From Gammaproteobacteria bacterium (GTDB lineage Bacteria > Pseudomonadota > Gammaproteobacteria > Steroidobacterales > Woeseiaceae): a stretch of 64,000 bases of DNA. The notes under the pieces are model-generated. The model was not told where the DNA came from and did not search any database. It was given only the letters and a program-made list of their open reading frames with translations. A program made the translations under genes and the position numbers. The stretch is from contig JAOTVR010000005.1 in NCBI GenBank assembly GCA_029863305.1, positions 1-64,000 of the forward strand, read 5' to 3'. Below are positions 36,801 through 50,699 of the stretch, one piece after another (position 1 is the stretch's first letter; every line of letters starts with the position of its first letter).

Positions 36801-39800
36801 GCATTCATGACCCCGGGATTCGGATCCTGTGGTGCGTTGATCAGAATGCCATCGGTCAATGGCGAGGCGCCGCCGCCCGCATCTGGAACTGCGATACCGT
36901 TCAGCGTCGTGCTGCCGGCGACATAGGTCGTATTGGCGGGCACCAGGTCGACGACATCGACGCCGGTCGCATTGTCCGTACCGACATTCTGCACGGTGAT
37001 CGTATAACGCAGCGTCTCGCCCGCCAGCAGCACGGTCGGGTCGCCGCTGATGTACGAAGAAACTTTCTCGACGCGGAACGCTGCCGCGGACTGGATCAGG
37101 ATCTGTGTGGGATCTTCGTCACCCTCGATATTCGGATCGGCCACACCGTTAACGTAAGGATCGTCACTCAGCGCAATCGGGTTGCCGGCGTAGAACATCT
37201 GAGATTGGTTGTAGACGAAGCTGCCGTTGGCTATCACAGGAGCCAGCTGGATCTCGAATTCGATCAACACGCTGCTACCGAGGCCGCCGAGGCTGAGATC
37301 GCGAACATCCAGCAAGCCCGTGCCATCTGCACCGCCGTCCGGATCGGTATTGCTGGCATCGGCACCGGGCGGCAGCATTACCACCGTCAACGTGCCCGGC
37401 TGGAACATCGGGGCCGCGTTCAGCGCATCCAGTTCATCGACGATGCTGAAGTTATCGACCGGCGTATCGCTGGCGTTCTCGACTCGCAGGGCATACCGAA
37501 TTGTGTCTCCGGGTGTGGCCACGGTGGCGGGATCTTCACCGCTGGTCACGTTGATCGCTGTCTTTTCGAAGATCAGCAGCGGTGAGAACTCGACGATCGT
37601 GTGTGCGTCTTCGTGATCCAGCACGCCGACGGTACCGTCGGTCAACGCGCGTGTGTACGTGCGCGCATAGCCGTTCGGTGTCGATTGGTCGAGACTGAAC
37701 CACTCCGTCGCGCCGGCTATGTTGGTCAGTACGACATCGTCCTGCGAGCCTGCATCCAGCGATGCCTGGTACGCGACGATCAGTCGTTGATCGGGGCCAA
37801 TCGCGGCGGCTGTCGTCAGCATTTCGAGTGTAAACGTGCAGGCCGGATCACCGTTGAACGTGACCGCAAAGTCGCTGCCGGCAGTCAGCGGCGGCGCGGC
37901 CGGCGTGACACCGTCCGCCTCGAACAGCTGCACGGTGACTGCGGCAGGCGCGACATCACACATGCCGCCTGTGGCGATATTCGGCAACACATCAGTCAGG
38001 TACGTTCCAAACGCCGGCGAAGAGCCGATGTTGTGGACGTTCAGCGTGAACATGTCCGGTATGCCGACGCGCATCCGCAGCGGCCCGCCTTTCTCGAGCG
38101 TCAGCTCCGGCTCGACGATGGTCATCGGCGCTGTTGTGCCGGGGTCGCCCGGCCTTTCGGTCGCGGTGTCGTTATCGACGAGGTTGTAGGTGTACGCGGC
38201 TGTGTTCGTAAACGTGAGCCCCGCCACATTCGTCGGGGTATCGGACAGTCTCACGGTGATCTCGATAACGGCCTGATCGCCGATCGGGATATCGATGCCG
38301 TTGACCGGATCCTCGATAACGAGATTCGTGGCTGTTCCCGTGTTGACCGGATTCCAGCCGCCCGCGCCCGACACTTTAGTGACGCCGACGAACTCCAGGT
38401 CGGCAGCGATTGCTGCCAGGTCATCGAGGATACGAACATCGTAGGACGGTGACGTGTGTGGCACGGACGGCACGGTGATCAGGTAGCTGAACTCCTCGCC
38501 TATTGTTGCCGTAGCTTGCGTGTTTGCTTTCGCCAGCGCGGCCGGCGGCGGCCCTTCGATCAATACGCGCGTCGGATCTTCATCACCAGCGATGCTGGGG
38601 TCGGACTGGCCGTTGACGTACGGATCGTCGCTATCGGCAAGCTTGATCGCGCCGAGCAGCTCTGCCTGGTTGGTAACGACCGTGCCGTTGACAAGTGGCG
38701 ACGCCAGCGTGATGTCGAATTGTATCGAGACCTCGCTTGCGGCAGGCAGGCTCAGGTTGCGGACATCGAGGATGCCGGCGCCGTTAGTGCCACCGTTCGG
38801 GTCCGTGTTGGATGTATCGGCGCCAGGCGGAATCGTGGCGGGAACGAGCGTCAGACTACCCGGCACGAAAACCGGCACCGCGTTAAGTTCACCCAGATCG
38901 TCGTAGAACGTGACGTTATTGAGCGGGCCATCGGTGGTCTGCAGGCGCAGGGTGTAGCGAAGTGTGTCTCCCGGGGCGGCAATCGTGGTCGGGTTTACGC
39001 CGGTCGTCAGGTTTGCGACGGTTTTCTCGAAGAAGTAGCCGAACAGCGCCGTTGTGACGGTATGCGCGTCCTGGTGATCGAGAACGCCGACCGTGCCGTC
39101 GGTCAGCGTGCGTATGAAACTCAGGCGGTCGGGGTTGCTGCTGTCGCCGTTGAACCACTGCGTCGCTCCAACAACGTTCGTGAGCGTGATGCCGTCGTCC
39201 GTGTCGGCATCGAGACGGGTGCGATAATTGATGATCAGTCGCTCGTCCGCGCCTATCGCAGCGGCGGGTGTCAGCATGTTCAGCGTGAGTTCGCACGCTG
39301 GTGCGCCACTGTAGCTGAGTGAGTAATCGGTGCCGGCCGTCAGCGGGCCCTTGCCGGGTACAGGCGTAACACCGTCGACTGCGAATACGCGGGCGTTTTG
39401 TATCTCGGGGGCGATATCGCACATGCCGCCCGTCGGGCCGTCGGGGAGCCGGTCGACGAGTGTAACGTCCCAGGCATCGCTGAGCCCGGTGTTGTGCACG
39501 TCGACCGCGAAGTCGCCCCATTCGCCGAGGTTGAGCGTTCTTCCCAGGGTTGCCGGACCGGTCTTCGTGACGATGAGTTGCGGCGCGGCAATCGTCATGG
39601 GCTCCGTAATGCCCCACTCGCCCGGGAGGGGCTCGTAAAATACGCCTTCGATGAGGCGTCCGAAATCCCACTTGGCGGTGTTGATGAACTGCGTTCCCGG
39701 TGCGTTCGCCGGCGTGTCGTCGAGCACCACCGTGATCTCGACGATGAACTGCTCGCCCGCCGGGACGATCGGGAAGTTGTCGAAGGTCAGGAAGCCACCG

Positions 39801-40501
39801 ACGTTCGAAAATGTGTGCGGTATCGGCGCGCCGCTACCCCGCCAGTACGCGGTGTAGCCGACGAACGTCATGTCGACGCCGGTCGCGTTAAGGTCGTCCC
39901 AGATCGTGATGCCGTGCAGGTCATTGACCGAACCTGCAACGTTGATCACGGTTTCAGTCGCCGGGTCAAACAGCACCGGGCTCGTCAGCGAGTAGGTAAA
40001 CGGTACACCGACCGCGGCCGTCGTCTGGCCCGCCGGGTTCTGCTTGTCGATCTTCTCGACGGGGATCAGCAGATTCTGGCAACCGTCCTGGATAGATGTC
40101 GACGAACCGTTCGTGAACCAGATCTTGTGTTCAAGGACAGCGTTACAGGACATCTGTCCCGTATGCACGACGTTGTCGAAGACGATGAGCCAGCGCTCGT
40201 TGGTCTGGCCGGGTTGTGTGAAGAAGCTGAAGTTCGTGTTCAGCGGATTATTCGCCGGAAAGTTCCGCACCGTGCAGTTCGTGTCGATGTTGATATTCGA
40301 CGGCGGATTCGGATCAACAAAACCATCGAGTGTGGCGTTCGGGAATGCCGAGCAGTCCGTTGCCTGCGCCTGTGCCGGCGTGGCGGCCAGCGATAACAGG
40401 GCCACGGCAAACAGCGCGGCGGTCCGCCGCACGGATATCTGTCGTCTCGCTAACGAGACATTGCCGCGCAGTGCTCGCGAGGTGTTATCGATTTGGGCCA
40501 T
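33854..40501 (-). CDS. Giant DUF11/SdrD-like repeat surface protein with OmpA-like C-terminus
   Basis: A 2215-residue secreted protein (signal about residues 26-48, cleavage after PAQAQA). It is built from DUF11-type beta-sandwich repeats marked by LRYTITVQNVGT, VVDLVPANTTYVAGSTTLNG and similar, from residue 150 to 1540 and again near 1885. Two blocks of about 340 residues, starting near 305 and 797, are clearly homologous, both containing TLTDGTVGVLDHxDAHT-like and SDDPYVNGxxDPxIxGDEDPT segments, so an internal duplication is evident. SdrD_B/Cna-B-like domains lie near 1595, 1712 and 2015 (KVFDDANRNGFQDGDE). The last 100 residues resemble a degenerate OmpA domain (DAVFEPGSTEMRD). A stalk-like adhesin or sheath protein is likely. 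Overlaps the downstream barrel gene by 4 bp. Confidence 0.85.
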   Translation of the reverse strand: MAQIDNTSRALRGNVSLARRQISVRRTAALFAVALLSLAATPAQAQATDCSAFPNATLDGFVDPNPPSNINIDTNCTVRNFPANNPLNTNFSFFTQPGQTNERWLIVFDNVVHTGQMSCNAVLEHKIWFTNGSSTSIQDGCQNLLIPVEKIDKQNPAGQTTAAVGVPFTYSLTSPVLFDPATETVINVAGSVNDLHGITIWDDLNATGVDMTFVGYTAYWRGSGAPIPHTFSNVGGFLTFDNFPIVPAGEQFIVEITVVLDDTPANAPGTQFINTAKWDFGRLIEGVFYEPLPGEWGITEPMTIAAPQLIVTKTGPATLGRTLNLGEWGDFAVDVHNTGLSDAWDVTLVDRLPDGPTGGMCDIAPEIQNARVFAVDGVTPVPGKGPLTAGTDYSLSYSGAPACELTLNMLTPAAAIGADERLIINYRTRLDADTDDGITLTNVVGATQWFNGDSSNPDRLSFIRTLTDGTVGVLDHQDAHTVTTALFGYFFEKTVANLTTGVNPTTIAAPGDTLRYTLRLQTTDGPLNNVTFYDDLGELNAVPVFVPGSLTLVPATIPPGADTSNTDPNGGTNGAGILDVRNLSLPAASEVSIQFDITLASPLVNGTVVTNQAELLGAIKLADSDDPYVNGQSDPSIAGDEDPTRVLIEGPPPAALAKANTQATATIGEEFSYLITVPSVPHTSPSYDVRILDDLAAIAADLEFVGVTKVSGAGGWNPVNTGTATNLVIEDPVNGIDIPIGDQAVIEITVRLSDTPTNVAGLTFTNTAAYTYNLVDNDTATERPGDPGTTAPMTIVEPELTLEKGGPLRMRVGIPDMFTLNVHNIGSSPAFGTYLTDVLPNIATGGMCDVAPAAVTVQLFEADGVTPAAPPLTAGSDFAVTFNGDPACTFTLEMLTTAAAIGPDQRLIVAYQASLDAGSQDDVVLTNIAGATEWFSLDQSTPNGYARTYTRALTDGTVGVLDHEDAHTIVEFSPLLIFEKTAINVTSGEDPATVATPGDTIRYALRVENASDTPVDNFSIVDELDALNAAPMFQPGTLTVVMLPPGADASNTDPDGGADGTGLLDVRDLSLGGLGSSVLIEFEIQLAPVIANGSFVYNQSQMFYAGNPIALSDDPYVNGVADPNIEGDEDPTQILIQSAAAFRVEKVSSYISGDPTVLLAGETLRYTITVQNVGTDNATGVDVVDLVPANTTYVAGSTTLNGIAVPDAGGGASPLTDGILINAPQDPNPGVMNAAVADNVATIVFDVVVYPDAPDGTIISNQAFVSAVDNGIADVPSDDPRTPLADDPTRDVVGNYPLLFAPKSAALEVDLGSPGIVDPGDVLRYTITMYNNGTVPATAVDLTDMVPADTTYVANSVTLNGLPVGQPDGGVFPLIDGIPVSSSDLAPPAPGAGGGVLSPGQAAVVQFDLQVNAGVLPGTLITNQAVVYSVEVPTTLTDGDGNPATGPEPTVVVVGAAQQLAIIKEVSVVNGGPALAGAELEYVVTVRNVGTVPAFYVTIYDDLDMVNPGYLTYVDQSATMNGLMDGVTVAGTLITGDYFNEYGPLNPDETITLRFRAIINPTLLEGTTITNTGQVSWDDPLKWAEASVSIDVGAMPDAGMLSGNVWHDADHDNTPGGVERPLEGWTVELLFNDQAVRSMLTDVDGYYLFTNVTPNYVPGETYSLRFAAPGANATTAMLGQTDSDFTDGQQRIDDIDVQEGSNLLALNMPVDPNGVIYDSVSRTPVAGATVTLVDVRNGVAIPGRCFDDPNQQDQRTVASGYYKFDINFSDPSCPGGPHYLIQVVPPDSSYVAGVSELIPPTSDQNTLPFDVPACPGSGNDAVLATAQTCEAQPSEFAPPPSVPARSAATNYHSFLNLDNTGIPGSSQLFNNHIPLDPRLDGAVAVTKTTPLLNVNRGQMVPYVITVSNSFGVDLQDVTVVDRFPAGFRYVEGSARFDGVETEPAVVGRELLWNNLSLDTDGRHSIKLLLAVGAGVSEGEFVNRAQAINSLTGTVMSEEAEATVRLVPDATFDCTDVTGKVFDDANRNGFQDGDETGLAGVRVVTARGLAATTDTHGRYHITCAITPHESRGSNFVLKLDDRTLPSGFRVSTRPVQVQRATRGKALRINFGASIHRVVGLDMADAVFEPGSTEMRDLWRSRIGLLLQELQKGPAVLRLSYVADVEAEALVEQRLDAMKDQIMTAWQDLNCCYELVIEPEIYWRLGTPPDKPKESSR

Positions 40502-40894: not shown

Positions 40895-42313
40895 TCAGGC
40901 AGCCGGCAAAAAGTCGATCGGGTAGATGATGGTCATCGCGACGATGTCTTCCTTGGCGCCGAAATCGAAGCTCTGCACACGTTCGACGACCTGTTGCGCG
41001 AGTGTCGGTGCGTCCATGTCGGACGAGTGCAGCTGACACAGTGACACCGAACCGTCCGGCTCTATGGTCAAGCGCAGGACCAATTGCCCGCGCAGCGTCG
41101 GATCTTTACGCAATTCGCGATTGTAAAGCCGGTACAACGCCGCCTTGTATCGATCGAATACGATCTGAATTTCCTCGTCAGTTCGTCCGGCCATCGCACC
41201 GCCGCTGAGCGGTCGGGCCGGGCCGTCGCCGCCACCAATGGAACTCGCGACGCGCGTTAGCTGCACGCCCTCGATACCGTCTCCACCACCACCGCCGACA
41301 TCCCGACTGATATCCGACAGGTTGATTCCGCCGCTTGAGCCCGGCGCCAGACTGGCAACCATCATTCGCTCCGGACGGCCGACGGCATCCTCGCCAGCGC
41401 GCTTGACGCGTGCCTGCGAACCCAGCCTGGCGGTCGGCCTCAGGTTCGCGCGACTGGCGAAGCTGTCGCGAAATGCCAGAATACCCTTCGACTTGACCTG
41501 CTCCTTGCTTTCGGTCTGCTCGACACTCGCGAGCTTCGGTTCCTGGATGGACTCAGGCAGCTCTTCAGGGGGTTGTTCTTCAACGACCTTCGGATCGGGC
41601 TCCGGTGGCTCTTCTTCCGGGATAACCGGCTCGGCAACCGGCGGAGGCGGCAGCGCGCGCTCCTGGCGGACGAGTTTCGCGACGCGCTCCGGCAGTTCAT
41701 TGACCGTTGCCCGCTCCATGATAGGCAGTGCGATAGTGCTAACAAGCAATGCGATGACAAGTGAAGCTGCAAGCGAGGTACCGAGAGACTTGCGAAAGCG
41801 CTGGTCCTCCTCGCATCCCCGCGACCACGGCATGACCTGAGATCGATTCGGCAGCGCGTCAAGCTCGCGTTCGACAAGCCACTCGTTCCTGCGGGCTTCC
41901 TCTCTCTCGATTGCATCCTGCAAGTCATAGTGGAGATAATCGAGAACGTCGTTCTGTTTCCCGACCTTTTGCAGAATCGACTCGCGGCGTTCTTCGACCA
42001 GCGCAACTTCTTCTCCAAATTCGCTTATTCTGCGGCGAGCGTTGCGAAGATACTCGGCTGGATTATCGGTACCGCTGCTCGCGTCCCAGAACAGATGCGC
42101 TGCACCGATGCCGTCGAGCTCCTCGAGCGAGCGGCAGACATCGGCCAGAACATCGTATCGATGATTCCGCTGCGCAAGCTCCTCGAGTTCGGCATTGACC
42201 TCTTGCAGTTCAGTTTCGAGGCCATCGAGCACGCGCTCGGACTGCTCGACCTGCTGCCGCAGTAACCGTTCTTCTTCAGCGTGTTCTGAACTCACCGTGT
42301 CACCTTGGTTCAT
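40895..42313 (-). CDS. TonB-like protein with AgmX/PglI C-terminal domain
   Basis: A 472-residue inner-membrane energy transducer. Residues 1-150 are an acidic coiled coil in the cytoplasm (EERLLRQQVEQSERVLDGLE). One membrane helix lies near 184-206 (SLVIALLVSTIALPIM). A periplasm-spanning Pro/Glu-rich stretch follows (about 222-265, LPPPPVAEPVIPEEEPPEPDP), then a Gly-rich linker. The last 95 residues form an AgmX/PglI-type TonB-C-like domain (FDRYKAALYRLYNRELRKDP, LTIEPDGSVSLCQLHSS, VVERVQSFDF). In Myxococcus, proteins with this domain (GltG, GltJ) couple the AglRQS motor to periplasmic and outer-membrane parts. Here it follows a TolQ-TolR-TolR trio at 6 bp, an equivalent layout. ATG 42313 is used; GTG 42295 with AAGG upstream is possible. 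Confidence 0.85.
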   Translation of the reverse strand: MNQGDTVSSEHAEEERLLRQQVEQSERVLDGLETELQEVNAELEELAQRNHRYDVLADVCRSLEELDGIGAAHLFWDASSGTDNPAEYLRNARRRISEFGEEVALVEERRESILQKVGKQNDVLDYLHYDLQDAIEREEARRNEWLVERELDALPNRSQVMPWSRGCEEDQRFRKSLGTSLAASLVIALLVSTIALPIMERATVNELPERVAKLVRQERALPPPPVAEPVIPEEEPPEPDPKVVEEQPPEELPESIQEPKLASVEQTESKEQVKSKGILAFRDSFASRANLRPTARLGSQARVKRAGEDAVGRPERMMVASLAPGSSGGINLSDISRDVGGGGGDGIEGVQLTRVASSIGGGDGPARPLSGGAMAGRTDEEIQIVFDRYKAALYRLYNRELRKDPTLRGQLVLRLTIEPDGSVSLCQLHSSDMDAPTLAQQVVERVQSFDFGAKEDIVAMTIIYPIDFLPAA

Positions 42314-42319
42314 CGGGTG

Positions 42320-42823
42320 CTAGCTCGAAGCTACCTGCGTTGGTTTCTGAATTACCGCCAGGGATACATCTTCATAACCCCCATCAGTGCAGGTCGACAT
42401 GATCTTCCTGATAACCACAAAGGGCACCGACTTGTCGGCAAGTATCGTGACCTCCTGACTGCCTGCGATCGCCATCGTGCTTGGCCCGACAATGTTTTCC
42501 TTCAACTCCTCGAGACGCGCGCTAATCGGGTCGGTTGTTCCCGCGCGTCCTTCGAGAATATCGCTTACACGTGCGACGATTTGGCCCTGTACAAACACGT
42601 CCTCCTTGCTAACGAAGATCACAACTGTTTCACGTGGTTTCGTTTCGACGCGCGACTCAGGTAGCGTGACATTCTTTGGCGCCTCGACCAACTCGACGGA
42701 ACCGGAATTTACCAGCAGAAAGAATACGAGAATCGTGAAGACATCCATCAAAGACGTTAGATTCATCTTCGTAATTTTCACGCGGTTTCGTGACATGCGT
42801 TTGATGCGGCGTGAGTTTCTCAT
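42320..42823 (-). CDS. ExbD/TolR family protein (motor stator, intact channel Asp)
   Basis: A 167-residue bitopic inner-membrane protein: a basic cytoplasmic tail, one membrane helix, and a periplasmic domain. The helix reads KMNLTSLMDVFTILVFFLLV, with Asp27 at the position of the proton-carrying Asp of TolR (Asp23) and ExbD (Asp25). The periplasmic part has the family pattern around VILADKSVPFVVIRKIMSTCTDGGYEDVSLAV. It should pair with the TolQ-like channel encoded two genes upstream. Its start overlaps the other TolR's stop by 4 bp. Confidence 0.92.
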   Translation of the reverse strand: MRNSRRIKRMSRNRVKITKMNLTSLMDVFTILVFFLLVNSGSVELVEAPKNVTLPESRVETKPRETVVIFVSKEDVFVQGQIVARVSDILEGRAGTTDPISARLEELKENIVGPSTMAIAGSQEVTILADKSVPFVVIRKIMSTCTDGGYEDVSLAVIQKPTQVASS

Positions 42824-43311
42824 GGCGCGTCTCCCACGGAAATTTCGGAAAACAACGCCACGAGTTCGAATTCTCCCTCGGCTTCCGCCTCAATCTCTAC
42901 ACTCCTGACCACGTCCATTACCTGGATCAGGTAATCATAGGGAATGCGCGCTTCCATCAGCACAGATGCAGCATCATGTCGAGGGTATCCCTGCTTCAGC
43001 TCAACCATGTAATCTGACAAGGTTTGCAGATCGAATTCATCATCCTTTTTGGGAATCGTCGCGATGACGTTCTTGCCATTGGTTATCTCGATACCCGCTT
43101 CACGCACGATTACCTCAACACGAAATCCATCTTCTTTGTTGGCCGCGCCGCCGGCTGCGCTCGGCAGATTCAGTTCGACGATCGTAAGCCTCGAGAACAC
43201 TGCTGTTATCAGCAGGAACGGAACGAGCACCACCATGAGATTCAGGAAAGTGGTTACGTCAAGTTCGTGTGCCGGCTTCGTGCGGCGCTTGTAGTGATGC
43301 CGTCTGGCCAT
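42820..43311 (-). CDS. ExbD/TolR family protein with Asn at the channel Asp position
   Basis: A 163-residue second TolR homologue. The membrane helix segment reads ELDVTTFLNLMVVLVPFLL. Aligning ELDVTTFLN with the TolR motif EINVTPLLD places Asn24 where the essential Asp normally sits; an Asp (Asp18) is instead found six residues earlier, at the membrane edge. The periplasmic domain (LQTLSDYMVELKQGYPRHDAASVLMEARIPYDYLIQVMDVVRS) is typical of the family. The pair of TolR proteins, one intact and one altered, recalls AglQ/AglS of Myxococcus. It is 5 bp downstream of the TolQ gene. Confidence 0.9.
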   Translation of the reverse strand: MARRHHYKRRTKPAHELDVTTFLNLMVVLVPFLLITAVFSRLTIVELNLPSAAGGAANKEDGFRVEVIVREAGIEITNGKNVIATIPKKDDEFDLQTLSDYMVELKQGYPRHDAASVLMEARIPYDYLIQVMDVVRSVEIEAEAEGEFELVALFSEISVGDAP

Positions 43312-43316
43312 GTCGG

Positions 43317-43967
43317 CTAAGCCTCGACCGGTCGCATCGCCCTTCTTGAGAACACGTTGAGGGCTTTGACGGTCGCCATTTCGAGACTATCGACAATGTC
43401 GCCGGTTTTGCTCGTCAATATCGCGTGAACGACGAGCAACGGTATTGCAACCATCAGCCCGAAAGCAGTGGTGTTCATTGCTACCGAAATACTTGCGGAC
43501 AGAAGGTCCGCCTTTTCCGCCGGATTTGCGTTTGCGACTGCCGTGAACGCCTGGATCAATCCCATGATCGTGCCGAGCAGACCCAACAGCGTAGCGATGC
43601 TCGACGCAAGGGCCACGTACGGCGTCCGCTTTTCAAGACGCGGAACGATTTCCATCATGCTCTCTTCCATCGCGATCTCTATGTCTTCACGACGTCGGAC
43701 CGCACCCTGCAACGACAAACCCATGTTCAGGACCTGCGAAATTGTCGATTCGTCCTTGCTGGTCATGTCGCGCGCCTTGTCGAAGTCGCCCTGAGCAAGC
43801 AGTGGCTGTACCTTGTCCCACACTGCCTGATTCTTGTTTGTCACGACGGCCAGCGTTATGTAGCGTTCGACTGCAACCGCGACGCCGAAGGCAAACACGA
43901 TCAGTATCGGATACATGAATACGCCACCTGACGCGAAGAAACCTACAATCGAATAGAAGAAATCCAT
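43317..43967 (-). CDS. MotA/TolQ/ExbB proton-channel family protein
   Basis: A 216-residue inner-membrane protein with three membrane helices: about 12-35 (GVFMYPILIVFAFGVAVAVERYI with the conserved ER), about 118-140 (LASSIATLLGLLGTIMGLIQAF) and about 155-180 (ISVAMNTTAFGLMVAIPLLVVHAIL). The Thr pair in MNTTAFGL matches the channel threonines of ExbB/TolQ. It would form the pentameric channel around a TolR dimer and convert proton flow into motion or force. It is the first gene of the four-gene operon TolQ-TolR-TolR-AgmX. A 186-bp gap precedes it, with an inverted repeat at 43992-44012. Confidence 0.94.
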   Translation of the reverse strand: MDFFYSIVGFFASGGVFMYPILIVFAFGVAVAVERYITLAVVTNKNQAVWDKVQPLLAQGDFDKARDMTSKDESTISQVLNMGLSLQGAVRRREDIEIAMEESMMEIVPRLEKRTPYVALASSIATLLGLLGTIMGLIQAFTAVANANPAEKADLLSASISVAMNTTAFGLMVAIPLLVVHAILTSKTGDIVDSLEMATVKALNVFSRRAMRPVEA

Positions 43968-43991
43968 TACCTAGTCCTCATTTGACAATAA

Positions 43992-44012
43992 GTCCTGAGT
44001 CACTCCCAGGAC
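43992..44012 (-). promoter_or_regulatory. Inverted repeat in the leader of the TolQ/TolR operon
   Basis: GTCCTG (43992-43997) and CAGGAC (44007-44012) form 6-bp arms around a 9-nt spacer, 25-45 bp upstream of the TolQ start codon. It could be an operator or a leader hairpin; there is no T-tract to make it a terminator. Confidence 0.3.
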
Positions 44013-44153
44013 AAGAGCAAGAATAGTTGTCGATCACGGTCTTGAATGTGACGCAGCGCACGTTCAGACCTTATGTCCGCTGGCAATAGCTGTTGACTTG
44101 ACCTGGCTCACAGGTTTGACGGTTTTTTGGCGCCGAACTCGCCGCAGAGCCGG

Positions 44154-44504
44154 CTATTGCGCCGCGCGTGCTTGTTCTTCGCCAGCGCGAATCTCGTAGA
44201 AACTCAGTTCGCGCAGAAAGACTTCTTTATCCACGGGCCGCGCACGATCGTCCAGGGTATCTGAGAGGCTGATGTCGTCACCGAGTTCGGACGATTTCCA
44301 GGGGACTATAACGAGCGACTTGGGCGCCTCCTCGTTGCCGAGAATCGACATGCCCGACAAGGTCTTGGGCTTGTCGATGCCGTCGCCCTGCTCGTTCGCT
44401 GCCTGCCCGGTATCGCTTGCGGCTTCCTCGGCCGGTGCTTCCTCAGCGCTGGCGGTCGCATACGCCAATAACATCACCACTCCAATGGCAAATAATCTCG
44501 GCAT
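44154..44504 (-). CDS. Small secreted protein of unknown function
   Basis: A 116-residue exported protein: signal peptide LFAIGVVMLLAYATASAEE, then an acidic low-complexity stretch (EEAPAEEAASDTGQAANEQGD) and a compact C-terminal part containing LVIVPWKSSELGDDISLSDTLDD and LRELSFYEIRAGEE. I do not recognise a domain. Start 44504 has GGAG 6 bp upstream and its ATG overlaps the stop of the TPR lipoprotein gene (TAATG), so it is translationally coupled to it and ends the first half of the envelope cluster. It may be a periplasmic accessory of the motor machine. Confidence 0.72.
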   Translation of the reverse strand: MPRLFAIGVVMLLAYATASAEEAPAEEAASDTGQAANEQGDGIDKPKTLSGMSILGNEEAPKSLVIVPWKSSELGDDISLSDTLDDRARPVDKEVFLRELSFYEIRAGEEQARAAQ

Positions 44505-45157
44505 TACTGCTCTCCTTGCCCCATGCGATAGCGGAGGTCTGTTACCCACATCGAAGCCTCGTCATCGATCGGCACTGTCGCGAGATAAGCTTCGTAATTA
44601 GCCAGCGCGCAGTCCAGATCACCGAGGTACAGATCACACAAGACCGCAAGATTGCGTCGCGCGTAGTGGTAGCCTGGATAGACAGACAGCGCAGCCTCGT
44701 AACTACGCCGCGCTGCATCAAAGCGACCGGTCTTGCGGTACACAATACCCAGCTCGTTGTGCGCGATGGGATGTTCCGGATTCGATTCAAGGGCGAGCAG
44801 CAGGTTGCGTTCTGCAGCATCGAGATTACCTGCGACATGGTAGGCAATACCGAGATCGATTCTTGGTGCACTCAAATCAGGTGCCGCCTCGATGACCGCC
44901 TCCAACTTCTGAATACCTGGCTCGACCTCACCCTGTTCGAGTAACTTCAAGGCCTGATCGTAATCAACGCGAATATTGCTGCTCACGCGTGCCTCTTCCG
45001 TGATCGTAAAACCGACCGCCTCCTGAATTTCGATTTTGGCGGCAGGCGTACGCGATGACTCTGTTGTGGTGCATGCAGCAATTACGATCGCCGCAAGCGG
45101 CAATACCGCGACGCGGATTGCTGATGGACGATAACGATTTGCATTGGCTGCGTGCAT
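44504..45157 (-). CDS. TPR lipoprotein (GltE-like candidate)
   Basis: A 217-residue protein with lipobox signal (LAAIVIAAC, Cys about 29). About four TPR units follow: DYDQALKLLEQGEVEPGIQKLE, PDLSAPRIDLGIAYHVAGNLDAAERNLLLALESNP, HPIAHNELGIVYRKTGRFDAARRSYEAALSVYP and YHYARRNLAVLCDLYLGDLDCALANYEAYL. It is probably anchored in the outer membrane facing the periplasm and works as a scaffold. Small TPR lipoproteins of this kind (GltE, NfsE) belong to the Myxococcus Glt and Nfs complexes. It lies 17 bp after the large TPR lipoprotein gene. Confidence 0.85.
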   Translation of the reverse strand: MHAANANRYRPSAIRVAVLPLAAIVIAACTTTESSRTPAAKIEIQEAVGFTITEEARVSSNIRVDYDQALKLLEQGEVEPGIQKLEAVIEAAPDLSAPRIDLGIAYHVAGNLDAAERNLLLALESNPEHPIAHNELGIVYRKTGRFDAARRSYEAALSVYPGYHYARRNLAVLCDLYLGDLDCALANYEAYLATVPIDDEASMWVTDLRYRMGQGEQ

Positions 45158-45174
45158 GATAAGACCCTCGGCGG

Positions 45175-48100
45175 CTAGTCCTGCCTGCTTTCCGAACCCG
45201 CGGATAATTGCACGGCGGCTTCCGTTATCGCTGCCGAATCGTCTGACTCGGCGGCGTCGACGTTATCCTGCTCCTCGATTCCGAGTGGCGCAGCGATCGG
45301 CATCCGGTAGGCATACGTGTCGATCGATCGCAGAAACCCACCGCTGATCTCATTCTTGGCATATCGTCCCGGCATCAGAACCGCCAGCTGGTCGAGACTC
45401 TTTTGCACCCAGGGGTTATAAATACCGCCAGCGAGTAACTCGAAGTTTTCCTCGTGAACATCGATGGCCCGTTCCTCGAACGGATACGCTTCCTCTTCGA
45501 TCACCAGCTCGTAGTCAACCTTTTCGGCTTCGCTCAGACCGGACGGACGCTCCGACTCCATCAAAGCCGTGCTGAATTCCATGTAGATCTCGGCAATATA
45601 GAAAGTCGCAGCTGCCGTGACCTCAGCGACTTCGTAGGCGACGAGATTTTCGAAAGCCTCCATCGCCGCATCCATTCGCTGCTGTTTATCTGCCAGGCTT
45701 TGCTCGAAGGGCTGGACCAGCCTGAGGCCCGCGAAGTGCTCGTAGCCCAGCTCCGCGAGTACCAGCGCAGCTTTCGCTGCAAGATATCTGCTGCGGTCCG
45801 TCCGCCCGTCTCCGGCCTCAGAATCCGCGGCGACGATTTCGTTCAGTTGCTCGTGATATCGCGTGTAGTCGAGTTCGGCTTTGAATATCTCGGCGAGTCG
45901 GGTTCGGGTTTGCATCGCGATATCAAGCGGTCGCGGATACTCGCTGACGTAGCGTTCGTACACACGAATCGCGTCGCTCAGAACGCTAACCTCGTCGTAC
46001 AGCTCCCCTGCGGTGAGCAGTGCCTCACGACTCAGCACAGGATCTGTTGCCTCGGCGGCGATTCGCTCGTGCTCGGCCGCAGATCGTGCAACCTGCCCGT
46101 CCTCGCGATAGACGAAAGCCAGCTGTTTCGTTGCCTCGGCGCGCAGTTCGTGTTCCGGGTGCGACAGCCGAAATTCTTCGAGCACCCCGGACGCCAGTGC
46201 CCAGTCCTGAAGCTTGATCAAAGCGGCCGCGGCATCGTATTCAGCCGACGTACGAATATCCGACGTTGGGGCGACATCCTTGATTCGCAGGAAGTGTTCG
46301 GCGGCCGCGCGATAGTCCTCCAGGAGGTTGGCCTGCTCTCCTTGTTTGTAAATAGCCGCAGCCAGCCCATCGACGACCGCGGCCCGTGATTCGTCATCGT
46401 CTGACGTAAGCGCCAGCACATTCATGTAGGCATGCTCTGCATTCTGGTAATCGGCAATATCGATCGACGAATGTGCGATGACGGCCCAGGCCGAACGCAA
46501 TAACGCAGTATCCGTTCCGGGATACCGGTCGATGAGTTTCTGCGCCGATGCTATTGCGGCCTCGAAGTCTTTCATCTCGTAAAGGTCGTCGGCGGCCGCC
46601 CCAAGAACGACCGGCGCCTGCTCATGGTCCGCAAAGGTGTCGGCGAATCTGAGCGAACTCCTGACCGTCGATTTCTTGACCTCGAGCCGACGCGCCCCGG
46701 TTGCCTGTTCGAGATCCTGCCGATGTGCAAAAACGGCAGCATAGCCCGCAGCCGAGGCCTGCTCATGTTGCTCGTACTCGTATGCTGTTCGCTCATATTC
46801 GACAGCTGCCTCGCCAAAATCCTTATTCTCCAACAGTAAATCGGCGAGTTGATAATTAACCTGCGGCGACTGCTCATCCCTGGGAAATGAATACAAGAAC
46901 TGGCGGTACCAGCGTTGCGACTCAAAGAAGTTCGCCGCCTGATCGTCAACGAGGTTTACGTTTTGGTAAAGCGCGTGATAGTGGCCGGCCAGATCTGTCA
47001 GATTCGTCTTGAGAAACCCGACGACCTCCCCGGTTTCGTCAACATCGAAGTAATTCCAATAGTCCGCATCCAGCGCATAGTTCAGCGCGAACTCCTTTTT
47101 TGCCTCGACGACGAGCAGCGGGAACCCGGCCTCGCCGAATATTTCGACCACACGCATACTGAAATGCGGAGCAACCTTGTGGAACGGATTGAGTCGGACG
47201 AAGGATTTGTACACCGACGCCGCGTCGTCATAGCGAAGCTTGCCAAAGTAGAATTCTCCCAGATTGCCGTAGATCTTGTCGGCATAGCTGCGGTGACCGT
47301 TAGCCGAAAAGTACTCGTCCACGACTTCGGCGCCGCCGATATTCGAGAAACTGAGGCTGATTACGCGAAAAGTGTCCGCTACCCGGTGTTCATCGTTTTC
47401 TGCATAATCCTCATCGAAGTCGTAGCCAATCGACAATCGGTAGTCGAGCATGGCCATATAATTGTGCAGCGCCTCTACATACATGCTCTGCTTGTACAGT
47501 GTCCACCCGAGCTTATATAAGGCCAGTTCAAAATAGGATGAGGTGCTGCCCATCCTGATGATTGCGCCGTAGGCGTCTTCAGCGTCGAGGAATTTTTTCC
47601 GCACGAAGAAATACTCGCCTCGCCGGAACTGAACCTCGTCGACGTAATTCGAGTATGGGTACTCGGCCACAAGGCGATCCATTACAACCATGGCATCATC
47701 AGGCTGCCCGATCTCATCGTACGCACGTGACATCTGGTAAAGTACTTTGTCGTTGCGTTCGTAGTTCGGATACTTCTCGAGTATTTGTCGATAGGTCTTG
47801 ATTGCTTCGCGTGGTCCGGTCGGGACGGCACCGTTGCCCGCCTCCGGCAGCTGCACGTCGAACTGCGTCTTGGTCGACAGTAGTTCTTCCCGTCCCGTCG
47901 CCCGCCTTTCGAAATCCTGATCGGACTCCGACGGTTCGACCGGCCCGGTCGTTTCTGCTCCGGTCACAGTCGCCGCGGATTGCTGTGCGGCTTCCGGCGC
48001 CGCCATCTCGACGATGTCCCCGCTGCCGAGCACACCGTAAGCCTGCTCGATCTGCAAGTCGGCAAGACGTCGCATTGCCTCGGGCGTTCGCGCGCTTTCC

Positions 48101-48285
48101 GACGTCTCTTCCAGATAGCGGCGATAACTTTGTGCCGCACGATCGAGGCTGTCTTCGAGGTATACCTCTTCGACGTCCGCCGTGACATCCTGTAGTTCGG
48201 CGAGCGTGCCCTGGGGACTCGTCGTTGCACAACCACTGGCCGCCAGACAGGCAACGGCGATGATGACGTTGCGCTGCCGCATCAC
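45175..48285 (-). CDS. Large TPR lipoprotein (GltD/AgmU-like candidate)
   Basis: A 1036-residue protein with a lipoprotein signal (VIIAVACLAASGC, Cys about 19) and then almost entirely helical repeats of TPR/YbgF type. Typical units: AIKTYRQILEKYPNYERNDKVLYQMSRAYDEIGQPDDAMVVMDRLVAEYPYS, LDAEDAYGAIIRMG, EAAVEYERTAYEYEQHEQASAAGYAAVF and AIASAQKLIDRYPGTDTALLR. An acidic linker rich in T, E and S lies near residues 90-150. Size and repeat type resemble AgmU/GltD (about 1200 residues) of the Myxococcus gliding machine, a periplasmic TPR scaffold. Start overlaps the preceding stop by 4 bp. Homology to GltD itself needs a profile comparison; the TPR content alone is weak evidence. Confidence 0.85.
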   Translation of the reverse strand: MMRQRNVIIAVACLAASGCATTSPQGTLAELQDVTADVEEVYLEDSLDRAAQSYRRYLEETSESARTPEAMRRLADLQIEQAYGVLGSGDIVEMAAPEAAQQSAATVTGAETTGPVEPSESDQDFERRATGREELLSTKTQFDVQLPEAGNGAVPTGPREAIKTYRQILEKYPNYERNDKVLYQMSRAYDEIGQPDDAMVVMDRLVAEYPYSNYVDEVQFRRGEYFFVRKKFLDAEDAYGAIIRMGSTSSYFELALYKLGWTLYKQSMYVEALHNYMAMLDYRLSIGYDFDEDYAENDEHRVADTFRVISLSFSNIGGAEVVDEYFSANGHRSYADKIYGNLGEFYFGKLRYDDAASVYKSFVRLNPFHKVAPHFSMRVVEIFGEAGFPLLVVEAKKEFALNYALDADYWNYFDVDETGEVVGFLKTNLTDLAGHYHALYQNVNLVDDQAANFFESQRWYRQFLYSFPRDEQSPQVNYQLADLLLENKDFGEAAVEYERTAYEYEQHEQASAAGYAAVFAHRQDLEQATGARRLEVKKSTVRSSLRFADTFADHEQAPVVLGAAADDLYEMKDFEAAIASAQKLIDRYPGTDTALLRSAWAVIAHSSIDIADYQNAEHAYMNVLALTSDDDESRAAVVDGLAAAIYKQGEQANLLEDYRAAAEHFLRIKDVAPTSDIRTSAEYDAAAALIKLQDWALASGVLEEFRLSHPEHELRAEATKQLAFVYREDGQVARSAAEHERIAAEATDPVLSREALLTAGELYDEVSVLSDAIRVYERYVSEYPRPLDIAMQTRTRLAEIFKAELDYTRYHEQLNEIVAADSEAGDGRTDRSRYLAAKAALVLAELGYEHFAGLRLVQPFEQSLADKQQRMDAAMEAFENLVAYEVAEVTAAATFYIAEIYMEFSTALMESERPSGLSEAEKVDYELVIEEEAYPFEERAIDVHEENFELLAGGIYNPWVQKSLDQLAVLMPGRYAKNEISGGFLRSIDTYAYRMPIAAPLGIEEQDNVDAAESDDSAAITEAAVQLSAGSESRQD

Positions 48286-50165
48286 TGTTCGCCCACTTTG
48301 GCCTGGGCCTGGGTCGCGCGGTCGTAACTGTCGGCCAGTGCGAACCGCGCCTTGTCCCTGTAATTCTCGAGTCGCCCGCGTCGCGCAATCAACTCTTCGA
48401 TGGCCACGACCTCCAGCAGGTGTCCCTGACGGGCCATGAGCCGGTCGATCTTCTCGACGGCCATCTGTGCATGAGCGCGTAGCCGCTTGATCGGCTTCTC
48501 ATAACCCACAAAGCTGTGCGTCGCGGCCTGCCGGGCACGCACGTATTGATCGTATTTATCCTGCAGGATTGCCATGGCACTGTCGAGGCCACGCAGGTTC
48601 TCGTCGAATTTTGTCAGGCGATCGTGAAACTCGGTCTCGAGCGTCCATGTCAGCAGACCCTTGAGGCGCGCCAGTCGCCTTTTCGAGGACTCCGCAGCCG
48701 GCGAGCTCAGGCCATGCAACTGCGTTTCGATTTGCTCGATCCGCCGCATAATGGCCTGCTCTTCGCGCGTCGCGAGAAACTTCGGTTGTGGTTTGGTGAG
48801 CATGTCGTCACGGCGTTGCACGAGCATTTTGTGTTGCTCGATACGCAAGCGCATTCTCGAATCCAACTCGCGAAATTCTGTGTCCACATCCGGCAGGAGC
48901 GGCTCGTAATGAGCGTGGCGGATGTCCACCATTTCATCGAAGGAGTCGAAACTGCCGTTCCAGGCGATCAGCTTGCGGCGCAGGTCCGCAAGATCCAGGT
49001 AATTCTGCAAGCCGGTCTGAAAATCGTGCGATGCGAGCAATTGCATCAGGTAGTACGTTTCCGGTGTTTCGGGCAGAGCGCGCAGGCGAATAACCCAATC
49101 CTTGTCCTTGCGGATTTCCTCTCGGATCAATGCCTCCAGGAACTTGCCTTCCCGGATGCTCTCGATCGAAGCATTGAGCTTGTCGACTTCGGCTCCGAAT
49201 GAATCCAGCGCGCGTCCGTAGAATACTGCCGCGCGGCCGTGCACGTTCAGTTTGCCGTAGGCATACGGCAACGCGAGCATCGCCTCCTGCGTGGCCCGAT
49301 CCGTAACTTCACGGTCGGCCAGTATCTTCCACGGAACCACAGCTCTTTCGAAGTTGTCGATCGACAGGTTGGCCCAACCCGAACTCAGCAGCGCCTGGTT
49401 GGAGAACGGACCGTCGAGACGTACGCGATTCAGAAACGGGACGGCTTTGTCGTATTCGCCGTCCTCGAGAAAGATTGTCCCGAGTACGAGATTTGATTTG
49501 TCACGAATTGCCATTTCGGCCGGATCATCTGTCGTGACCTGTCCGGCTCTCTCCAGTTGTTCAAGCGCTGCCTGCCGCTGATTGTCCTGCAGATAGGCGA
49601 TGCCGAGATTGTAAGCCGCGAAAGCACCAAAACTGTCCGAACCCTGCAAGCCCTTGAGAACGTCAATCGAGTCCGCCGCACGCCCCTCTGCCAGATAGAT
49701 ATTCGCCCGCAGGAATTCGATATCGTCGCGAATCGATGCAGGTATTTTGCCATCGATACGGCCGAGTGCTCGCAGCGCGTCCGTGATCTGGTTCTTTTGA
49801 AAGTGGATTCGGGCCAGTCTGTACGCCGCATCGTTGCGCACGACTTCATCGACGGCGCCTTCGAGAACAGCCTTGATCGCACGACCTGCGCGATGGTGCA
49901 TTCGATAACGCAGCTCGAAATCGCCAAGCGAGAATTCGGCGTCGTCGATATGATAATAGAGAGTGTCGAGTTCGGGCTCGTCGATCTCGTCGTACTGTTT
50001 GACTTCGGTATCAAGCCGTTCGAGGGCCTCGAAGAATTGCCCCTGGTGTGCATAGTAAAGCGCTTCGCCGAAGTACAAATCCTTCAGATCTTCACCTCGA
50101 CTTGGACTCGTTGCCAGACCAACAGACAGCAGCAGCCCGATCACACACAGCGGTGCCCGGCCCAT
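48282..50165 (-). CDS. Secreted TPR/coiled-coil protein (GltC-like candidate)
   Basis: A 627-residue exported protein (signal CVIGLLLSVGLATSPSRG). Residues 25-330 contain TPR-like helical pairs (GEALYYAHQGQFFEALERLDTEVKQYDE, AAYNLGIAYLQDNQRQAALEQLERAGQVTTDDP, LVLGTIFLEDGEYDKAVPFLNRVRLDGPF). The C-terminal half (about 400-627) is a long charged helical region likely to form coiled coil (EQAIMRRIEQIETQLHGLS, LRAHAQMAVEKIDRLMARQGHLLEVVAIEELIARRGRLENYRDKAR). Length matches GltC-type periplasmic TPR proteins. It starts 3 bp after the small coiled-coil gene's stop and overlaps the next gene by 4 bp. Confidence 0.82.
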   Translation of the reverse strand: MGRAPLCVIGLLLSVGLATSPSRGEDLKDLYFGEALYYAHQGQFFEALERLDTEVKQYDEIDEPELDTLYYHIDDAEFSLGDFELRYRMHHRAGRAIKAVLEGAVDEVVRNDAAYRLARIHFQKNQITDALRALGRIDGKIPASIRDDIEFLRANIYLAEGRAADSIDVLKGLQGSDSFGAFAAYNLGIAYLQDNQRQAALEQLERAGQVTTDDPAEMAIRDKSNLVLGTIFLEDGEYDKAVPFLNRVRLDGPFSNQALLSSGWANLSIDNFERAVVPWKILADREVTDRATQEAMLALPYAYGKLNVHGRAAVFYGRALDSFGAEVDKLNASIESIREGKFLEALIREEIRKDKDWVIRLRALPETPETYYLMQLLASHDFQTGLQNYLDLADLRRKLIAWNGSFDSFDEMVDIRHAHYEPLLPDVDTEFRELDSRMRLRIEQHKMLVQRRDDMLTKPQPKFLATREEQAIMRRIEQIETQLHGLSSPAAESSKRRLARLKGLLTWTLETEFHDRLTKFDENLRGLDSAMAILQDKYDQYVRARQAATHSFVGYEKPIKRLRAHAQMAVEKIDRLMARQGHLLEVVAIEELIARRGRLENYRDKARFALADSYDRATQAQAKVGEQ

Positions 50166-50168
50166 GGT

Positions 50169-50699
50169 CTACCAGTCTCCGACCTGAATTCCGCTCGCTC
50201 CGAGACCGGGCCCGGCCAGGGTGATGCCAAGCGCTTTTGGCTTGACACCCTTGGCAAAACCAAAAGTGTCCGACAGGCTGAAGTCCTTGCCGCTCTTCAG
50301 CTTGCCCATCATGGTGACGCGCAGTTCGTGGTCGCCGGTGACGATGTTGCCGGTATAGACACGCTGCACGCCGCCTTTTTGCAGCGCCTCCAGTTCCTGA
50401 AAACTGTAGATGTGGTGGGTGGCCATTTCTCCGTTAATCTCGATCTGTAGCGCATCGAGCCGAAATGCCTCATCCTCGGCCATCGAGACGAAAACCGCGA
50501 TTTGCGTGTTCGATGGGTACAGTAATCGTTCTTCGAGATTGCTGAGCTCCGACGCGATATTCAGTACGTCGGATTTGATTTCCTGAACCTGGCCATCGAG
50601 GCTGCGCAGCTCGTCGCCGGATATGTCCTGCGCGCTGCCGGGGGCTGCCAGGCCCGCGGCCAACAGCGCGAGCACGAACGTACGTATCGGTGTCGACAT
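50169..50699 (-). CDS. Secreted coiled-coil/beta protein of unknown function, first gene of the envelope cluster
   Basis: A 176-residue exported protein: signal FVLALLAAGLAAPGSAQD, then a heptad-like segment (LDGQVQEIKSDVLNIASELSNLEERLLYP), then a beta-rich domain with QIAVFVSMAEDEAFRLDALQIEING and HELRVTMMGKLKSGKDFSLSDTFGFAKG, ending GASGIQVGDW. The C-terminal part looks like a small beta-sandwich. I do not recognise the family. ATG 50699 is taken as start with AGGGA about 8 bp upstream; a TTG 6 bp earlier is in frame. A perfect 7-bp inverted repeat lies just upstream. It is translated 3 bp before the TPR/coiled-coil gene and should be a periplasmic partner of it. Confidence 0.75.
   Translation of the reverse strand: MSTPIRTFVLALLAAGLAAPGSAQDISGDELRSLDGQVQEIKSDVLNIASELSNLEERLLYPSNTQIAVFVSMAEDEAFRLDALQIEINGEMATHHIYSFQELEALQKGGVQRVYTGNIVTGDHELRVTMMGKLKSGKDFSLSDTFGFAKGVKPKALGITLAGPGLGASGIQVGDW

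What the first reader, a model, noticed from the sequence alone, without database searches (positions are those of the whole stretch)
40895..50699. Agl-Glt/Nfs-like force-transducing envelope machine in a putative gammaproteobacterium
The cluster holds a TolQ-type channel, two TolR-type stators, an AgmX/PglI-domain TonB-like protein, three periplasmic or lipoprotein TPR proteins (627, 1036 and 217 residues) and two small secreted proteins. All are co-directional, with overlaps or a few bp between most genes. The parts list and sizes parallel the Myxococcus gliding (AglRQS with GltC, D, E, G) and spore-coat (Nfs) machines. No gliding GTPase (MglA) or polarity gene is present, so a different use of the motor is likely, for example moving or exporting a surface protein or polymer.
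Basis: partly seen in the sequence, partly recalled or inferred. Interest (0 to 1): 0.88.

Follow-up and report, generated by a model that had tools for sequence, protein, structure and literature searches.

The report
Ion-driven motor with giant surface protein
A marine-type bacterium carries genes for an ion-driven envelope motor, related to the one that moves gliding myxobacteria, next to genes for a giant adhesin-like protein and its outer-membrane anchor, and this pairing recurs across many bacteria, which suggests what this long-unexplained class of motor may act on.

Summary
They match the Agl-Glt 'core complex' that Luciano et al. (2011) reported, function unknown, in Gammaproteobacteria, so the machine class is not new. 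What is new here is that the unit is larger. Directly downstream lie a 2215-residue DUF11-repeat protein (33854-40501) and a 1705-residue protein with three OmpA domains and a very large outer-membrane barrel (28740-33857). This pair marks a motor subtype, which also has a long cytoplasmic extension on the TonB-like protein and an extended GltD-like protein. Of 80 named subtype loci, 47 have sequence past the motor, and all 47 carry the pair or a giant frame: 33 downstream with DUF11, 4 downstream without a DUF11 hit, 10 upstream. Among ordinary-type loci, 0 of 34 carry it downstream. In 369 genomes the subtype's GltD-like protein and barrel share 13 genomes, each with one more alone. Linkage survives rearrangement: downstream in most Gammaproteobacteria, upstream mainly in Desulfuromonadales and Desulfobacterales, divergent in a Curvibacter MAG. 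The giant-barrel module also exists in genomes without any such motor, so the motor is probably not needed for export. My best reading is that the motor mobilises a wall-anchored giant adhesin. Function is untested.

The parts
50169..50699 (-). small secreted protein 'sec178' (176 residues from the ATG at 50699)
   Evidence: relatives in 43 of 54 loci; no Pfam or NCBIfam match
48282..50165 (-). 627-residue periplasmic TPR protein, GltC-like by place and size
45175..48285 (-). 1036-residue TPR lipoprotein, GltD-like by place and size, long type
44504..45157 (-). 217-residue TPR lipoprotein, GltE-like
44154..44504 (-). small secreted protein 'sec131' (116 residues from the ATG overlapping the previous stop)
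   Evidence: relatives in 51 of 54 loci
43317..43967 (-). TolQ/AglR-type channel
   Evidence: PF01618
42820..43311 (-). TolR1, membrane position Asn24 where Asp is usual
   Evidence: PF02472; Asn in 107 of 108 rows
42320..42823 (-). TolR2, membrane Asp27
   Evidence: PF02472; Asp in 111 of 111 rows
40895..42313 (-). AgmX/PglI-domain TonB-like transducer with a long cytoplasmic N-terminal extension
   Evidence: NF033768; extension in 79 of 80 subtype rows and 0 of 37 ordinary rows
33854..40501 (-). giant 2215-residue DUF11-repeat protein with SdrD-B-like C-terminal region
28740..33857 (-). 1705-residue protein: three OmpA domains, middle region, large outer-membrane barrel

Best explanation
An eleven-gene, motor-driven giant-adhesin machine: a subtype of the Agl-Glt core complex with its own load. 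SHOWN by sequence: a TolQ-type channel with two unlike TolR subunits (one with the usual membrane Asp, one with Asn); a TonB-like transducer with a long cytoplasmic extension; three TPR proteins; two small secreted proteins; a giant repeat protein; and a barrel protein with three OmpA domains. The last two are tied to this motor subtype. INFERRED: ion flow through the channel works the transducer across the periplasm, the TPR proteins pass the force on, and the force loosens and shifts a cell-wall-anchored outer-membrane barrel that carries the giant protein. The giant adhesin is thereby moved or repositioned on the cell surface, for attachment, surface movement or particle handling. The first OmpA domain would be the wall grip, and the motor would release it, much as Tol releases Pal (recalled).
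For: Linkage: of 80 named loci found with the subtype's GltD-like protein, 47 had at least 1.5 kb after the AgmX gene and all 47 have the pair or a giant frame (33 DUF11 downstream, 4 giant frames downstream without a DUF11 hit, 10 upstream or divergent); 9 more show it upstream; 24 were cut by contig ends. Ordinary-type loci: 0 of 34 with 1.5 kb after AgmX. In 369 genomes, 13 of 14 shared each way (Fisher p 6e-22); 9 loci have both genes on one contig. Order differs between groups. The barrels of the subtype form one clade, support 100. GltD and barrel distances correlate over 24 linked loci, r 0.90, 0 of 2000 permutations. Three OmpA domains in 26 of 26 barrels of the subtype whose front end is present, 0-1 in the 15 others. 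The first OmpA keeps Asp and Arg at the two wall-binding positions in 26 of 26. Giant and barrel are fused in one open frame in L135. The giant's C-terminal region resembles SdrD adhesin domains and its N-termini vary.
Against: No functional data of any kind. The giant-barrel module occurs in genomes with no GltD-like hit at all (G066, G309, G345, G145, G165, G224), so it can do something unaided. Surface exposure of the DUF11 part is inferred; its C-terminal end may be periplasmic. OmpA domains 2 and 3 are degenerate at the wall-binding positions. The barrel model is of middling confidence and matches no barrel family specifically; the adhesin-fold match covers one domain at low TM (0.30). 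One of 14 named subtype genomes (G373) had no barrel. G214 has a barrel of the clade but no long-type motor was seen. One locus (L049) has a multihaem cytochrome gene, not a DUF11 gene, next to AgmX. The distance correlation does not correct for shared species descent. Linkage cannot tell movement from export or tethering.
Confidence: 0.45

Rival explanations
1. Export energiser: the motor powers passage of the giant protein through, or its assembly on, the outer-membrane barrel rather than later movement.
For: Giant and barrel genes overlap by 4 bases and can be fused; a large barrel could be a conduit; the giant has a signal peptide by eye.
Against: The same giant-barrel module occurs in six near-complete genomes without any GltD-like hit, so export should not need this motor.
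Confidence: 0.22
2. Envelope tether or coat builder: a Tol-Pal-like or Nfs-like machine that links outer membrane, wall and a protein coat, with no movement over the surface as output.
For: Three OmpA domains on the barrel protein, first one with intact wall-binding positions; TolQR family; Nfs precedent (PMC3858216, passages).
Against: Restricted to 14 of 369 genomes, so not a general envelope need; OmpA 2 and 3 are degenerate.
Confidence: 0.18
3. A TonB-like importer: the barrel is a receptor for a large nutrient and the giant protein captures it.
For: Motor and transducer families are Ton/Tol-like; some distant barrel relatives are annotated TonB-dependent receptor.
Against: No TonB-receptor plug or barrel domain by Pfam; TPR set is foreign to known Ton systems (recalled).
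Confidence: 0.07
4. Neighbourhood without function: the giant-barrel pair merely travels with the motor.
For: The two have related histories, as plain co-inheritance would also give.
Against: Downstream, upstream and divergent arrangements keep the pair beside this subtype only; OmpA number and AgmX length change together with it.
Confidence: 0.08

Closest known systems
Agl-Glt core complex ('Group B' genes gltC, D, E, G, aglR, Q, S) of Gammaproteobacteria and Geobacter (Luciano 2011, PMC3169522)
   Same: Same kind of parts list and clustering: TolQ plus two TolR, AgmX/PglI-type transducer, TPR proteins.
   Different: The giant-linked subtype adds a giant DUF11 protein, a triple-OmpA barrel, a 161-271-residue front part on the transducer and an extended GltD-like N-terminus. 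None is mentioned in the passages seen; supplementary Figure S1 was not seen.
Myxococcus Agl-Glt gliding and Agl-Nfs spore-coat machines (PMC3858216)
   Same: Proton-driven TolQR-type motor coupled through a GltG/NfsG-type protein to periplasmic and outer-membrane parts.
   Different: No MglB found in the held genome; the candidate load is a protein rather than slime or Exo polymer.
Flavobacterium type 9/gliding motor and adhesin SprB (PMC8986121, abstract start seen in a listing)
   Same: Works like it in the proposed reading: proton motor, very large outer-membrane barrel, surface adhesin that moves.
   Different: Different protein families; the barrel profile finds no PDB sequence at all.
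Tol-Pal and Ton systems
   Same: Motor and transducer families; OmpA/Pal-type wall-binding domains.
   Different: No TolB and no TonB-receptor domains among the 11 cluster proteins scanned.

Membership tests
Agl-Glt core complex (Group B, PMC3169522) | AglR-type TolQ/ExbB channel plus two TolR/ExbD-type subunits, adjacent | tested here: met
   channel relatives in 45 of 54 loci
Agl-Glt core complex (Group B, PMC3169522) | GltG-type transducer with AgmX/PglI C-terminal domain | tested here: met
   NF033768 in 30 of 30 members, GltG model in 29 of 30, best 1.7e-18; the window protein does not reach the full-length GltG cut-off (33.5 of 650 bits)
Agl-Glt core complex (Group B, PMC3169522) | GltC homologue | tested here: inconclusive
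   GltC model in 4 of 33 members, best 1.1e-5; MamA and YbgF each in 23 of 33
Agl-Glt core complex (Group B, PMC3169522) | GltD homologue | tested here: inconclusive
   no GltD model matched; no Myxococcus sequence was fetched for a direct comparison
Agl-Glt core complex (Group B, PMC3169522) | GltE homologue | tested here: inconclusive
   GltE 3.7e-11, but PilW 6.3e-13 and Tgl 5.5e-13
Agl-Glt core complex (Group B, PMC3169522) | all genes in one cluster | tested here: met
Myxococcus gliding machine | MglB polarity partner (Robl_LC7) | tested here: not met
   0 hits in the held genome, 90% complete; rings in 3 of 14 control genomes
Myxococcus gliding machine | MglA GTPase | tested here: inconclusive
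   one Arf-type hit of 44 bits, but the model rings in 12 of 14 controls, so it is not specific
Myxococcus gliding machine | Group A genes gltA, B, F, H, I, J, K | not tested
   only GltJ was seen, through the shared C-terminal domain
Nfs spore-coat machine | sporulation role and Exo polymer partner | not testable with these tools
   needs experiments
Ton system | TonB-dependent receptor plug and barrel domains in the outer-membrane partner | tested here: not met
   Pfam lists only OmpA and, below its cut-off, DUF2490 for the 1705-residue protein
Tol-Pal | TolB in the cluster | tested here: not met
   none among the 11 cluster proteins scanned
Type 9/Gld SprA translocon | homologous SprA-type barrel | tested here: inconclusive
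   Foldseek and VIA-align list SprA among many barrels at low TM and high rmsd; no sequence-profile match

The most novel reading that the evidence does not exclude
A further, independent kind of bacterial machine that drives a giant adhesin across the cell surface: an AglRQS-type motor with an asymmetric TolR pair (one protonatable, one Asn), coupled through TPR lipoproteins to a wall-gripping barrel of about 40 strands that carries an adhesin of 1600 to more than 3700 residues. It would be spread over Gammaproteobacteria, Desulfuromonadales and relatives, and would give the 'core complex of unknown function' a defined protein cargo, as SprB is for the Gld motor.
Probability: 0.3. Interest if true: 0.86.

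Novelty: new variant of a known kind. Interest (0 to 1): 0.62.

Why it matters
The Agl-Glt core complex was reported in non-gliding bacteria in 2011 with unknown function (PMC3169522), and its authors later suggested that specialisation follows the transported cargo, possibly protein (PMC3858216, section 20). A subtype that comes with the same kind of giant protein and outer-membrane barrel names a concrete candidate cargo. Carriers include isolates such as Alcanivorax, so an open question becomes a gene-deletion and microscopy experiment. If motion is confirmed, it would also show how a motor was fitted to an adhesin module, because the module is found without the motor too.

Tried and rejected
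NCBIfam models stood in. A plasmid search with the GltD-like protein found nothing; with the barrel it found 21 records with distant relatives (under 60% identity), mostly alphaproteobacterial among the 20 listed. PDB sequence searches gave TonB, capsid-like low-complexity and TPR or BamD matches for the AgmX and GltD-like profiles, OmpA-type domains for the whole 1705-residue protein and nothing for the middle-plus-barrel profile. The structural second look at the barrel gave FimD ushers, TonB receptors, MOMP and porins, often with rmsd above 14, so no family is claimed. The large frames near AgmX in L058 and L084, first suspected as giants, carry no DUF11 or barrel domain. Flagellin was not found and PilT-type ATPases were; this neither proves nor excludes gliding.

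Weak points to tell. My first tally filed one upstream locus, L214, under downstream; one search corrects it to 33 downstream, 4 large frames without DUF11 hit (L186, L216, L225, L231), 10 upstream. Of the 24 untestable loci, 12 had at least 3 kb upstream without the pair. The 34 ordinary loci were tested downstream only (in 35 of the 36 ordinary loci with a recognised first gene, under 3 kb upstream was held); on the upstream side I rely on the tables, in which, by my reading, no barrel match lies near an ordinary GltD on the same contig. Six barrels labelled 'motor' in the tree lie on other contigs than the motor (L135, L137, L139, L142, L155) or in a genome without a long-type motor (L103); the label there rests on co-occurrence and cut contigs. 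Only fetched barrels were in the tree; weaker matches (for example G038, 410 bits) were counted as outside. Bit score alone does not separate the two kinds of barrel. In the distance test, L198 was dropped because its barrel is split. In the set of 54 next frames, at least L049, L201, L226 and L233 are other genes. AgmX row L165 (80 residues before the membrane block) is the one exception. 'Motorless' means no core gene in the fetched neighbourhood; some of those genomes (for example G126, G112, G157) have an ordinary core elsewhere. Paper searches that named DUF11 and those on the core showed no paper joining the two, but only open-licence papers are held.
Full report
WHAT IS THERE. The window is bases 1-64000 of an 85-kb contig in a 4.25-Mb, 200-contig assembly. 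After 393 bases, on the same strand, comes a 2215-residue DUF11-repeat protein and then, overlapping by 4 bases, a 1705-residue protein with OmpA domains. The organism is probably near Woeseiaceae: its GltD-like protein is 80% identical to that of an unplaced gammaproteobacterial MAG and 66-78% to those of MAGs titled Woeseiaceae (inference).

THE CORE IS KNOWN. Luciano et al. 2011 (PMC3169522; passages seen) described a clustered 'core complex' of gltC, D, E, G and aglR, Q, S homologues in non-gliding Gammaproteobacteria and Geobacter, with one extra gene and unknown function. PMC3858216 (passages and section 20 seen) proposed that specialisation follows the transported cargo, possibly including proteins. 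In my survey the GltD-like protein occurs in 43 of 185 genomes at E 1e-8 and 88 of 369 at E 1e-15, both drawn from the class. In 54 loci (53 fetched plus the window) my profiles find TolQ in 45 and AgmX in 44, and most loci show the same order. At least eight (L048, L057, L059, L070, L072, L074, L077, L088) hold the TPR half without a motor beside it, some of them without one of the small genes; in M. xanthus, too, Glt and Nfs share one motor (PMC3858216). Profile support for GltC, GltD and GltE homology is weak or unspecific; for the GltG-type C-terminal domain it is good.

A SUBTYPE WITH A GIANT LOAD. GltD-like matches fall into two groups: 15 loci in 14 of 369 genomes at 834 bits or more, aligned from residue 1-118, and the rest at 712 bits or less, mostly aligned from about residue 150. 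In the first group 13 of 15 loci show a DUF11 gene as the next gene after AgmX, one (G265) is cut there by the contig end, and one (G086) has a multihaem cytochrome gene next. For G086 the end of another contig carries similar haem repeats and then the DUF11 giant and barrel, so the cytochrome gene is probably inserted between (inference). Barrels of the subtype's clade are found in 14 genomes, 13 of them shared with the long-type GltD (Fisher p 6e-22). The exceptions are G318 (79% complete; DUF11 gene beside the motor, no full barrel) and G214 (barrel fragment on a 3.5-kb contig, only an ordinary GltD seen). Nine loci have GltD and barrel on one contig, 9-20 kb apart.

NAMED RELATIVES. A scan of the named genome collection with the long-type GltD alignment gave 222 relatives, of which the best 80 were returned. 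Of these, 47 had at least 1.5 kb after AgmX, and each has the pair or a giant frame: 33 with DUF11 downstream, 4 with a large frame downstream that my DUF11 profile does not hit (all four genomes or contigs have a barrel elsewhere), and 10 with giant and/or barrel upstream. Nine more show it upstream; 24 were not testable. The upstream arrangement (giant, barrel, then the core, same strand) is mostly that of Desulfuromonadales and Desulfobacterales, with a Chromatiales MAG (L203) and one titled Methyloceanibacter (L223); a Curvibacter MAG (L226) has the pair divergent. Of 14 named genomes then searched, 13 have the barrel, one of them only in pieces; the miss is a 2.5-Mb Thiobacillus MAG whose motor contig ends inside GltD. 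Isolates among the carriers are two Alcanivorax strains and, by its title, bacterium 005FR1. Ordinary-type loci: 0 of 34 testable carry the pair downstream.

OTHER MARKS OF THE SUBTYPE. Before the membrane block, AgmX has 161-271 residues in 79 of 80 subtype rows and at most 57 in 37 of 37 ordinary rows; the extra part looks like a coiled coil by eye. All 26 subtype barrels whose front end is present have three OmpA units; the 15 others have none or one. The first unit keeps both positions taken as wall-binding (recalled from OmpA structures), Asp and Arg, in 26 of 26; the second keeps Asp in 26 and Arg in 11; the third keeps Asp in 2 and Arg in 26. Across subtype and ordinary loci alike, TolR1 has Asn where TolR2 has the membrane Asp: 107 of 108 rows against 111 of 111. 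Whether M. xanthus AglS shows the same I could not check; a review notes an essential proton-binding site on AglQ (PMC9120999, passages).

WHERE THE PAIR CAME FROM. In a tree of 45 barrels the 30 of the subtype are one side of a branch with full support and the 15 others lie on the other. GltD and barrel distances over 24 physically linked loci correlate at 0.90, 0 of 2000 permutations reaching it. Outside the subtype the module is either split in two genes or fused in one frame (L148-L150, L153, L154, L157, L158), and one subtype barrel is fused too (L135). Six near-complete genomes with the module have no GltD-like hit at all (G066, G309, G345, G145, G165, G224). So the module can probably reach its place without this motor, which speaks for movement over export as the motor's contribution (inference).

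STRUCTURE. The middle-plus-barrel model (pLDDT 75.9, pTM 0.71) has about 40 long strands and matches barrels in general, none specifically. The giant's last 266 residues (pLDDT 84.5, pTM 0.52) match SdrD and UafA adhesin domains best, over part of their length (TM 0.25-0.33), and end in a strand-helix-strand-helix-strand unit of OmpA-like order; only 1 of 40 members hits the OmpA model, 34 of 40 the SdrD_B model. N-termini mostly carry signal peptides by eye and differ between loci; 35 of 54 next frames share one N-terminal family. A variable front and a conserved rear is what a surface adhesin with a fixed anchor would show (inference).

MECHANISM AND JUDGEMENT. Shown: parts, order, linkage, subtype marks. 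Inferred: ion drive, force transfer through AgmX and TPR proteins, wall grip by OmpA1, surface exposure and motion of the giant. I put 0.45 on a motor that mobilises the anchored giant, 0.22 on export, 0.18 on tethering or coat building. The machine class is known; the subtype with its load did not appear in the papers listed by searches that named DUF11. Hence 'new variant of a known kind'.

Noticed in passing
L049:2-2176 (G086) and L253: A frame with 21 CXXCH haem-binding motifs in 725 residues, running off the contig, directly after AgmX; a similar stretch with 10 motifs lies at the end of another contig before the DUF11 giant.
   Followed up: partly
L048, L057, L059, L070, L072, L074, L077, L088: Half clusters: the TPR half of the core without TolQ, TolR or AgmX beside it; a motor encoded elsewhere may serve it.
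   Followed up: no
window 42320-43311: The two TolR subunits are split into an Asn form and an Asp form in nearly all loci, a built-in asymmetric stator pair.
   Followed up: partly
G000:C18, C91, C25: The held genome carries three core clusters: two giant-linked ones (GltD-like proteins 72% identical) and one ordinary (42%).
   Followed up: partly
L200, L201, L211: A second TolQ-like gene (210 residues where complete) follows AgmX in these Desulfuromonadales/Desulfobacterales loci.
   Followed up: no
L149 (G112:C2): A DUF11-plus-barrel fusion in one huge frame, 11777 residues in the whole-genome search, with 24 DUF11 units seen in the fetched part.
   Followed up: no
hits H1-H20: Barrel relatives on mostly alphaproteobacterial plasmids, annotated TonB-dependent receptor, OmpA family or hypothetical protein; no plasmid matched the GltD-like protein.
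   Followed up: no
L058:6814-10641 and L084:8667-12185: In these two loci of one family a large protein whose start looks, by eye, like a cyclic-nucleotide-binding domain follows AgmX instead of a giant.
   Followed up: no
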